A stretch of 64,000 bases of DNA from Actinomycetota bacterium (GTDB taxonomy: Bacteria > Actinomycetota > Thermoleophilia > Solirubrobacterales > 70-9): contig JAFDWB010000077.1 of assembly GCA_018268675.1 (NCBI GenBank), positions 62,001 to 126,000 on the forward strand, read 5' to 3'. The position numbers and the translations under genes were made by a program. Each line of letters opens with the position of its first letter. The stretch's first letter is position 1. Shown in pieces: positions 61,362 through 63,683 of the stretch. The notes under the pieces were generated by a model, which was given only the letters and a program-made list of their open reading frames with translations, was not told the DNA's origin and made no database searches.

Positions 61362-61516
61362 CGCGGCCGGATCCTATGTCGGAGCTGTAGGGTTGTGGAC
61401 GGACCGTGCTAGGCGGGGAATCAGCGGTGCCCTATAACCCGCAATCCGCTCTAGCGGGGCCGACTACCGTTCCGAGGGACTGACCGTCGGGGTCAGTACG
61501 TCGCGGCGGCGTTGAC

Positions 61517-61612
61517 GGCCGGGTCCCGCGCGACGTGGGCACGCGAACCAGGTCAGGTCCGGAAGGAAGCAGCCTTAAGCGGATGCCGCGGGTGCCGCGG
61601 GGAAGCCCGGCC
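61517..61612 (+). ncRNA. ffs: Signal recognition particle RNA (4.5S type)
   Basis: The universally conserved SRP apical sequence GGTCAGGTCCGGAAGGAAGC (61551-61570) followed by AGCC is present. Flanking sequence folds into one long hairpin: GGCCGGG (61517-61523) pairs with CCCGGCC (61606-61612), with CCCGCGCG/CGCGGG segments between. The size of about 96 bases fits the small bacterial form. Proximity to dnaX is the normal context. The ends may be a few bases longer on each side. Confidence 0.93.
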
Positions 61613-61704
61613 CGAGCCATAAACGACGGACACGCCCGGTGACCAGATCTCGAAGGCGGGTGCACGGTCCACTTTTTCGCCCTCCCGAGGGCCGGCGGGG
61701 ATGG

Positions 61705-61768
61705 CGCCTCGGACGGTTGGTGAGTTGACCCCCGCAGGGTGTGGTCAACTCACCAACCGTCCGAGGCG
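61705..61768. repeat. 26-base-pair perfect hairpin
   Basis: GCCTCGGACGGTTGGTGAGT and following bases (61705-61730) pair without mismatch with 61743-61768, leaving a 12-base loop. Its left arm is related to the hairpin at 61899. It is too long for a normal terminator and has no U-run. Confidence 0.85.
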
Positions 61769-61816
61769 GTTTCAGGGATGGGACGGGGTTCGGGGAGCCT
61801 TGCGCGGGCCGTCCAA

Positions 61817-61864
61817 GTTGACGGGCCGAAACCGGACTATCTGACGGGCTTTCGGCCCATCAAC
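61817..61864. repeat. Palindromic repeat, intergenic copy
   Basis: The 15-base arms GTTGACGGGCCGAAA and TTTCGGCCCATCAAC flank 18 bases. An inverted copy about 85 percent identical lies at 63054-63102 inside a gene. Read on the plus strand this copy would encode KPDYLTGFRPIN, almost the same peptide as the intragenic copy. Confidence 0.75.
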
Positions 61865-61898
61865 GTCAGCGGGCGCGGTGGCCCGTGGGCGGCTCGGA

Positions 61899-61944
61899 CG
61901 CTTGGTGAGTTGAGGGCGCCAGGGGACACACAACTCAGCAAGCG
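61899..61944. repeat. Second hairpin related to 61705
   Basis: CGCTTGGTGAGTTG (61899-61912) pairs with CAACTCAGCAAGCG (61931-61944) with one mismatch and an 18-base loop. The left arm and its upstream bases (CTCGGACG) match the left arm of the hairpin at 61705, so the two are diverged copies. Confidence 0.7.
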
Positions 61945-62007
61945 GTGGGGACCCTGCGCACGGAAGCGTGACTTCTCCCGCCTTCCGTCACTCCTTCCCA
62001 CCTCACA

Positions 62008-62067
62008 AGAGCCGCGGATGCCGGGCCGACCTCAGCCTGCCCGGGTCGGATCGGCATCCGCGGCTCT
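62008..62067. repeat. Third large hairpin
   Basis: AGAGCCGCGGATGCC (62008-62022) pairs perfectly with GGCATCCGCGGCTCT (62053-62067); CCGACC/GGTCGG extends the pairing inside. It lies about 60 bases beyond the 3' end of the membrane-protein gene and may terminate its transcript. The gap 61680-62129 holds this, the two related hairpins and the repeat at 61817, and no credible gene. Confidence 0.7.
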
Positions 62068-62129
62068 CGCAGGCGCCTCGCGTCCACCGCAGGCCCTCCG
62101 TCCCTTGGCCGTCCCACACCACGCCCGCC

Positions 62130-63683
62130 TCAACCTTCGCAGCGGCTGTAGACGATCCAGCTCTCGTTGCGGGCGACCTCGTGGAAGCCCTGCGGCGGGT
62201 GGAGGTTGTGGAACTTGGTCTTGTCGTTCGGGTCGAGGATGTAGTTGTGGATCACGAAGGCGCTCGCGGGCTGGACCCAGTAGCCGATTTCGCCGAGCTT
62301 CCGCTTTTCTTCGCCGGAGACCGCCTCGCTGGCGCTGACGATGTCGGTCGGCTTGACGTCGAGGCCGAAGGCGAGGCGCGGCACGGCGCGGTGATTGGGG
62401 ACCGCGATCGGGCCGCACGCCGGTGAGAAGGCGCCTGCGTCGACGAGTGCGGTGAGGTCGTTCTCGATCGTGCCCTGGTCGGTGAGGTCGGTGTGGACCT
62501 GGCGGTCGAGGCTCCACTGGTTCGGCAGCCAGATGATCACCATCGCGAGGACGATCCCGGCGAAGACCTGCCAGCGCCGCCGCCACGGGTTGCCGCGGTC
62601 GAGGAAGCGCCAGCCGAGCAGGGAGAGCGCGAAGAAGATCGAGAGGATCGCGCTCGCGAGCATCGTGTAGCGGGCGATGATCGCCAGGCCCGCGGTGGCG
62701 AGGACGGCGAAGGCGAGCAGCGCGAGGACGACCGCGGCGAAGCCGAGCGCGGCGCGGCGCGGCAGCAGGAAGATGCCGAGCAGGAGCCCGCCGAAGCCGC
62801 CGATCATCCCCGGCCACTGCATGATTTCGCCGAGCCGGCGCGGCCCGTAGAGGACGAGGTCGACCGGCCCCGTCTGGCGCTGCAGGGTTTCGACCGTCTT
62901 CTGCGTGCCGGTCAGGGAGTAGAGCGGGTTGCCGGTCGTGATCGCGTCGAAGAGGACCCAGATGATGAGCCCGCCGAGGGCCAGCAGTCCGAGCCAGGCG
63001 AGCTCGCGGTTCGAACGCTCGCCGCGCCACCCCACTTCCCAGCCGAACACCGTGTTGATGGGCCGAAAACCCGTCATATGGTCAGGTTTTCGGCCCGTCG
63101 ACGTGGTAGCGCCGGCCCGGCGGACGTCGAACGCCAGCCACAGCCAGTAGGCGATCGCGAAGCCCCAGGCCTCGGGGCGCAGGAGGCCCGCCGGGACCAG
63201 CAGGGCGAGCACCGGCCAGCCGGCACGCGGCCTCCGCGCCTCGATGTAGAGGGCGCCGAGGCAGAGGGCGATGTAGGGGAGGTCGACGTAGGCGCGCAGC
63301 CCGTTGGAGAGGAACGGCGCCCGGGTGAGGACGATCGCGGCGGCCACGATCCCGACCCATTTGTCGAACCAGACCGTCCCCAGGCGGTAGACGAAGTAGG
63401 CGATCAGGCCGAGGGAGACGTAGGCCAAGACCATGATCACGGTGATCGGCGCTTCCCCGAACGGCGAGGCGAGGAGGCCGATGAAGTCGGTCAGCGGGTG
63501 GGGCGTGGGGGGCAGGGCGGCGCCGTAGTCGGGGCTCATCCCGTGCGCCAGTTCGCGTCCCCAGACGAGCGCGTAGATCGTGTCGTAGTTGGGGAAGCCG
63601 ACCGGGAAGACGATCAGCAGCGCCGCGGTGACGGCGGCAACCCACGCCGCCGGCGTGAGCCACTTGCGGAGGCTCGGTGGCAC
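62130..63683 (-). CDS. Polytopic glycosyltransferase-like membrane protein (GT39/GT87-like)
   Basis: A 517-residue membrane protein with about ten hydrophobic helices (first: [20 protein letters not shown]) and an early extracytoplasmic loop ([23 protein letters not shown]) like that of polyprenyl-phosphate-dependent glycosyltransferases, where the acidic residues are catalytic. A soluble C-terminal domain follows residue 400. A 16-residue stretch ([16 protein letters not shown]) in a loop between helices is encoded by a palindromic repeat inserted in frame. The start is ATG 63683. Its true substrate is unknown; glycosylation of wall or lipid is probable. Confidence 0.78.
63054..63102. repeat. 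Palindromic repeat, intragenic copy
   Basis: A 49-base copy (arms GTTGATGGGCCGAAA and TTTCGGCCCGTCGAC) lies within the membrane-protein gene. It keeps the reading frame and adds about 16 residues to a loop. It is an inverted copy of 61817-61864. Confidence 0.78.

What the first reader, a model, noticed from the sequence alone, without database searches (positions are those of the whole stretch)
61817..63102. A palindromic repeat that inserts in frame into a protein
Two inverted copies about 85 percent identical (61817-61864 and 63054-63102) have 15-base arms and a tRNA-free hairpin form. The second copy adds about 16 residues (containing [12 protein letters not shown]) to a loop of a membrane protein. 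The intergenic copy would encode KPDYLTGFRPIN; two of the four codon differences are synonymous, and the encoded peptide seems conserved. This recalls the palindromic elements of Rickettsia that insert in genes, but in an actinobacterium.
Basis: partly seen in the sequence, partly recalled or inferred. Interest (0 to 1): 0.65.

Follow-up and report, generated by a model that had tools for sequence, protein, structure and literature searches.

The report
Hairpin DNA rewritten inside protein genes
A 49-base hairpin repeat has spread to about sixty places in this actinobacterium, some of them in frame inside core enzyme genes, and related species keep it at the same places but with each genome's own middle sequence.

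Summary
The two window copies are real members of a dispersed palindrome family: GTYGAY-GGGCCGAAAA-core17-TTTTCGGCCC-RTCRAC. The host genome has 62 copies (reversed control 0). It is confined almost entirely to one Thermoleophilia genus (8 of 399 class genomes match), named members being Solirubrobacterales MAGs. Copies lie at gene 3' ends (66 convergent, 59 tandem, 4 divergent), and 12 of 62 host copies lie in frame in ORFs, including PurQ, LeuRS, NuoG, DnaE2 and PabAB. Orthologues without the insert exist for PurQ and LeuRS.

At 15 orthologous sites shared by species, arms are 97% alike, but the 17-base core is only as alike as random copies (0.375 vs 0.381). In 38 of 41 cases the core best matches another copy of its own genome, not its orthologue. 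Sites look old; contents turn over within each genome.

It works like Rickettsia palindromic elements and intragenic REPs, but lacks the REP tag and any Y1/RAYT transposase (0 of 12 genomes). My preferred mechanism, copy-to-copy core replacement, is inferred. The peptide itself is not what is conserved.

The parts
61817..61864 (+). Intergenic copy 1 of the palindrome (48 nt; one A lost from the left arm; core type CCGGACTATCTGACGGG)
   Evidence: family
63054..63102 (-). Copy 2 (49 nt), in frame inside the membrane-protein gene; encodes ...[17 protein letters not shown]...
63060..63069 (+). Conserved arm GGGCCGAAAA of copy 2
   Evidence: arm positions 95-100% conserved over 149 copies
63070..63086 (+). 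17-base core of copy 2, the part that is lineage-specific at orthologous sites
63087..63096 (+). Conserved arm TTTTCGGCCC of copy 2
62130..63683 (-). Host gene: 517-aa multi-pass membrane protein without a Pfam match; the insert lies in a loop between hydrophobic segments
61696..62066 (.). Composite intergenic repeat that carries copy 1 in its middle; related composites elsewhere in the genome
61705..61768 (+). Perfect 26-bp-arm hairpin within the composite repeat
   Evidence: I2
62008..62067 (+). 24-bp-arm hairpin (92%) at the other end of the composite repeat
   Evidence: I3

Best explanation
A non-autonomous, REP/RPE-like palindromic repeat. Long ago it settled at gene 3' ends and, where frame and loop tolerance allowed, inside protein genes. 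Its sites are then inherited, but its sequence is repeatedly overwritten from other copies in the same genome. The step I think most likely is this: replication stalls at the hairpin, the nascent 3' end in one conserved arm re-primes on the same arm of another copy, copies that copy's 17-base core and returns through the opposite arm (template switching, or short gene conversion). Core length is nearly constant, so the reading frame survives. Shown: the family, its positions, in-frame insertion, absence in some orthologues, no locus memory of the core, same-genome similarity. Inferred: that sites are ancestral rather than re-targeted, and the template-switch mechanism.
For: 62 copies in the host, reversed control 0. 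42 orthologous pairs at 15 loci among six copy-rich genomes: arms 0.976, core 0.375; randomly drawn copies of the same genomes give 0.982 and 0.381+-0.025. Within-genome core identity is 0.70 against 0.48 between genomes; label permutation gave a largest difference of 0.023 against 0.218 observed. 38 of 41 site-matched copies have a closer core in their own genome than in any orthologue, 2 the reverse, 1 tie; with one random copy on each side, own wins 77%, orthologue 17%. Same frame at every shared coding site examined and at least one identical boundary in most sets. DnaE2: 5 of the 6 copy-rich genomes have the insert and the sixth (G008) keeps GATGTTGATGGGC, which I read as an in-frame deletion scar. 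Core pairing persists with several pair types. Several unrelated core types coexist in one genome, which argues for copying rather than selection for one optimum.
Against: The outer hexamers also show no significant locus memory (0.863 vs 0.837, 21% of null draws as high), so re-insertion at fixed sites is not excluded. Presence is patchy: PurQ has it in G000, G006, G011 and G010 but not G003, G007, G008, which needs several losses. The membrane loop carries unrelated palindromes or a tRNA piece in G009, G005 and G008, and the DnaE2 site another hairpin in G009, which suggests permissive sites hit more than once. No replacement event was observed directly. The orthologous sets came mostly from loci fetched because they hold copies.
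Confidence: 0.55

Rival explanations
1. Recurrent targeted insertion: an unidentified trans-acting enzyme inserts (and excises) the palindrome repeatedly at the same permissive or sequence-preferred sites, so that each genome's sites carry its currently active type.
For: No locus memory in core, arms or hexamers; the same loops hold unrelated palindromes in other lineages; patchy presence in PurQ and LeuRS.
Against: No Y1/RAYT transposase in any of 12 genus genomes. Of the 106 exact arms in the host genome (100 listed), none belongs to a longer element with the arms as terminal repeats; the unpaired arms looked at are degenerate palindromes. No common target motif was seen in empty alleles. 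A partial remnant rather than clean excision in G008 DnaE2.
Confidence: 0.27
2. Selection alone: each copy mutates independently towards a lineage-specific recognition sequence of a DNA- or RNA-binding protein.
For: Same-genome similarity of cores and maintained pairing.
Against: The host genome holds at least three unrelated core types at once, G008 also several; changing many core bases symmetrically at ~15 shared sites in parallel is implausible (inference).
Confidence: 0.06
3. Ordinary transcription terminators or REP-type mRNA 3'-end stabilisers that occasionally fall into genes.
For: 66 convergent, 59 tandem and only 4 divergent among 129 intergenic copies with both neighbours called; the element's TGA is the stop codon of a flanking gene in 20 of 146.
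Against: No T-run follows the stem (consensus RTCAAC); in-frame copies in core genes; does not account for core turnover. May be a secondary effect rather than a competing origin.
Confidence: 0.1

Closest known systems
Rickettsia palindromic elements (RPE; Ogata et al. 2000 and 2002, seen here only as cited in passages of PMC10969869 and PMC3733652)
   Same: Palindromic, dispersed, inserted in frame in many unrelated, often metabolic, genes.
   Different: Here 49 nt instead of ~150 nt, an actinobacterium, no shown sequence relation, and conserved arms with genome-specific cores at orthologous sites.
GTAG- and CGTC-tagged REPs (Di Nocera et al. 2013, PMC3733652; abstract, sections 6 and 15, part 1 of section 17 and found passages read)
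   Same: Short palindromes between convergent or tandem genes, supplying stop codons, with intragenic copies including dnaE2 and tRNA synthetases; that paper reports different REPs at about the same site of recB in two Xanthomonas species.
   Different: No unpaired GTAG or CGTC tag, stem longer than the 5-13 bp given there, no Y1 transposase in the genus.
REPINs with RAYT transposases (PLoS Genet 2011, PMC3116915; passages read)
   Same: Genome-wide populations of hairpin-forming sequences.
   Different: No RAYT; single palindrome rather than a pair of REPs.
E. coli REP 'evolution by gene conversion?' (Higgins et al. 1988; seen only as a reference in PMC3733652)
   Same: Gene conversion proposed for dispersed palindromes.
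   Different: Here the inference rests on orthologous, in-frame sites whose cores match the rest of their own genome.

Membership tests
REP / REPIN | Short palindrome in many copies, mostly at gene 3' ends | tested here: met
   62 copies; 125 of 129 not divergent
REP / REPIN | Unpaired GTAG or CGTC tag at one end | tested here: not met
   Base profile of 149 copies shows paired GTYGAY/RTCRAC ends
REP / REPIN | RAYT (Y1) transposase in the genome | tested here: not met
   PF01797 in 0 of 12 genus genomes, control positive in 5 of 14; the genomes are incomplete
Rickettsia palindromic elements | In-frame palindromic inserts in unrelated genes | tested here: met
Rickettsia palindromic elements | Element length about 150 bp | tested here: not met
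   49 nt; RPE length from a PMC10969869 passage
Rickettsia palindromic elements | Sequence homology to an RPE family | not tested
   No RPE sequences were fetched
MITE of an insertion sequence | Parent IS with the same terminal repeats | tested here: not met
   Own genome only: no widely spaced arm pair among the 100 of 106 arms listed; three unpaired arms were degenerate copies
MITE of an insertion sequence | Target-site duplication | tested here: inconclusive
   Flanking AT is common at both ends, but AT is self-complementary, so duplication and palindrome extension cannot be told apart
Intrinsic terminator | T-run after the stem | tested here: not met
   Consensus after the stem is RTCAAC

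The most novel reading that the evidence does not exclude
An intragenomic find-and-replace: hairpin sites are inherited across species, while a copying process acting between the conserved arms overwrites their cores genome-wide, so that the same 5-6 residues in many unrelated housekeeping proteins (PurQ, LeuRS, DnaE2 and others) are rewritten to each lineage's own version.
Probability: 0.4. Interest if true: 0.82.

Novelty: new variant of a known kind. Interest (0 to 1): 0.64.

Why it matters
In-frame palindromic inserts are a known oddity of Rickettsia and of some REPs. Here is a family in a distant phylum, with no transposase found, in which the same protein site can be compared across up to six species. 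It makes a long-standing question testable with sequence alone: whether short dispersed palindromes move, or are homogenised in place by gene conversion. It also shows core enzymes carrying the same foreign insert, with content set by the genome and not by the protein.

Tried and rejected
Rejected: (1) Y1/RAYT mobilisation: no PF01797 in 12 genomes. (2) Reverse-transcriptase-driven copying: PF00078 in only 2 of 12 genomes, not in the host. (3) MITE with a parent IS: single-arm search. (4) A known structured RNA: Rfam found only SRP RNA at its curated thresholds. (5) Peptide-level conservation: three frames, arms as conserved outside genes. (6) Chance: controls. (7) Integron attC-like sites were considered from memory and dropped, because the end motifs run the opposite way; this was not tested by a tool.

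Led nowhere: no target site could be defined; empty PurQ alleles share the GAYGGG of a native Asp-Gly turn with the element end, which could be microhomology, a scar or coincidence. An inverted-repeat scan of L152, L236, L150 and L148 missed the long G009 hairpin because of its gap limit; folding found it.

Limits: the gene caller was home-made (trained on 132 long ORFs). Rows dropped before counts: three chance pattern hits (L064:4095, L071:2063, window:12304) were removed, and L001's ORF is doubtful because the insert lies upstream of the likely start. Six of the in-ORF copies were fetched by protein search, so 43 of 189 overstates the rate; the host figure (12 of 62 after the window chance hit is removed; the 12 include the doubtful L001) is fairer. 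All genomes with many copies that have names are MAGs; the others are unnamed. Two orthologous sets that reach outside the six copy-rich genomes, and members in G010, were left out of the 42 pairs.

Full report
OBSERVATION. Both palindromes exist as described. Copy 1 (61817-61864) is intergenic; copy 2 (63054-63102, minus) lies in frame in a 517-aa membrane protein gene (62130-63683, minus). They differ by five substitutions and one gap over 49 columns. The pattern GGGCCGAAA-N19-TTTCGGCCC with up to three mismatches is expected 0.04 times in shuffled windows.

FAMILY. In the host genome (4.2 Mb, 95 contigs) a slightly longer pattern occurs 62 times, its reversed control 0 times. The profile of 149 copies gives GTYGAY-GGGCCGAAAA-N17-TTTTCGGCCC-RTCRAC, with arms 95-100% conserved and a variable core. 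Over 187 copies the core positions remain mostly paired, with exchanges among C-G, G-C, T-A and A-T: 0.769 paired against 0.712 when 3' halves are dealt anew within genomes, 0 of 500 as high.

DISTRIBUTION. Of 61 genomes (the host and 60 relatives), 16 have a match, the abundant ones all in the same genus: G006 111, G011 88, G000 63, G003 52, G007 44, G008 37, G010 10. With broader arms G010 has 35 copies, of a type GGGCCGATTT...AAATCGGCCC. Across 399 genomes of the class, 8 match: 7 of the 10 sampled members of this genus and one of a sister genus (2 copies). Nearly all listed stretches are Solirubrobacterales or Actinomycetota MAGs 70-9, SZAS-9, SZAS-14, SZAS-15 and RYN_247; single hits in an Arthrobacter and a deltaproteobacterial MAG were not followed. 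Copy-rich genomes form a clade on a three-protein tree.

POSITION. In six copy-rich genomes, 189 pattern hits were placed with a simple gene caller: 146 intergenic, 43 within ORFs. Of the 129 intergenic hits with both neighbours called, 66 are between convergent, 59 between tandem and 4 between divergent genes. In 20 of 146 the element's own TGA is the stop codon of a neighbour. Many intergenic copies in the host lie in the middle of composite repeats of about 400 bp with other hairpins, as copy 1 does.

IN-FRAME COPIES. Three of the 43 are chance hits and one (L001) is doubtful. Host proteins with an insert include PurQ, leucyl-tRNA synthetase, a NuoG-like NADH dehydrogenase, a PabA-PabB-like fusion (two inserts), a DnaE2-like polymerase, a hydantoinase, a GT87 protein and a GH15-like protein (the exact gene names are my reading of the domain matches). 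In other genomes: a Mur ligase, an acyl-CoA carboxylase part, an FAD oxidase and glycosyltransferases. Frames are 0 (29), 1 (7) and 2 (7).

ORTHOLOGUES. PurQ: insert in G000, G006, G011 and G010, none in the other eight genomes (G001 has a loop of similar length without the palindrome). LeuRS linker: insert in G000, G006, G008 and G011, none in eight. DnaE2: insert in G000, G003, G006, G007 and G011; G008 keeps only GATGTTGATGGGC, in frame, which I read as a deletion scar; G002 and G004 are short; G009 has an unrelated hairpin; in G001 and G010 only the distant paralogue was found. PabAB: one site in G000 and G008 but not G010, another in all three. Membrane protein of the window: palindrome in G000, G003, G006 and G007, the GATTT form in G010, a diverged form in G001; G008 has a tRNA-Val-like piece, G009 a nested hairpin, G005 an imperfect palindrome, and G002, G004 and G011 short loops. 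Two orthologous copies are shared with a different genus of the family (G026 with G006; G019 with G000).

SITES OLD, CONTENTS NEW. For the 15 loci with members in two or more of the six copy-rich genomes (42 pairs), arms are 0.976 identical but cores only 0.375, the same as copies drawn at random from the two genomes (0.381, sd 0.025). Outer hexamers are 0.863 against 0.837 (21% of draws as high). When the better of two orientations is taken, the core figures are 0.44 orthologous and 0.47 random cross-genome. Flanking DNA of the same loci is typically 70-90% identical. Cores are alike within a genome (0.697) and less so between genomes (0.479); G011 is nearly uniform (24 of 30 identical), while G000 and G008 hold several types. 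In 38 of 41 cases a copy at a shared site has a closer core elsewhere in its own genome than in any orthologue; own genomes offer more candidates, but with one random copy on each side own wins 77% to 17%. A shared site by independent untargeted insertion is very unlikely given ~60 copies in 4 Mb (inference). So either the sites are ancestral and their contents are replaced, or the element is repeatedly targeted to the same sites.

MECHANISM. I favour replacement in place, by template switching or short gene conversion between the conserved arms. It explains conserved arms, nearly constant length, kept frames, mixed core orientation and several core types per genome. It is inferred. Targeted re-insertion by an unknown enzyme is the main rival: no Y1 transposase, no parent IS seen in the host and no reverse transcriptase in 10 of 12 genomes, but these searches do not cover every enzyme. 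That other lineages hold unrelated palindromes in the same loops shows that the loops are permissive and weakens the ancestral reading somewhat.

KNOWN KINDS. The element works like Rickettsia palindromic elements and intragenic REPs. Di Nocera et al. (PMC3733652) report REPs near 3' ends, supplying stop codons and lying in dnaE2 and tRNA synthetase genes. It is not filed as a REP because the tag and the transposase were tested and not found, nor as an RPE because of its length and the untested homology. Searches for Solirubrobacterales with 'palindromic', for REPs with Actinobacteria and 'intragenic' and for concerted evolution of such repeats gave no report of this family in their listings from the held open-access library; much literature is outside it.

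Noticed in passing
window 61404-61667 (+): Bacterial large SRP RNA (Rfam RF01854, 162 bits), directly upstream of the composite repeat that carries copy 1.
   Followed up: no
window 61696-62066; also L002, L020, L027, L163, L183: A family of composite intergenic repeats of roughly 400 bp with several hairpins and the 49-nt palindrome in the middle; at least two subfamilies in the host genome.
   Followed up: partly
L148 2434-2511 (-), genome G008: ARAGORN calls a tRNA-Val (cac) in the region of the membrane-protein gene where relatives carry the palindrome; the sequence looks like the 3' part of a tRNA joined to the ORF, in frame.
   Followed up: partly
L242 797, L243 1501, L244 1501 (genome G009): Another palindrome: conserved inner hairpin AAAAGCCGGCCT..AGGCCGGCTTTT with outer arms that differ in every copy yet pair almost perfectly; one of the three copies is in frame in the same membrane-protein loop.
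   Followed up: partly
genus genomes G000-G011: Copy number goes with genome size within the genus: 3.8-4.7 Mb genomes have 37-111 copies, 2.4-2.9 Mb genomes 0-10 (one 3.4 Mb genome has 1).
   Followed up: no
L044 1501 (G026) with L077 1431 (G006); L042 1501 (G019) with L005 1501 (G000): Copies at orthologous places in two different genera of the family, one pair in frame inside a membrane protein.
   Followed up: partly
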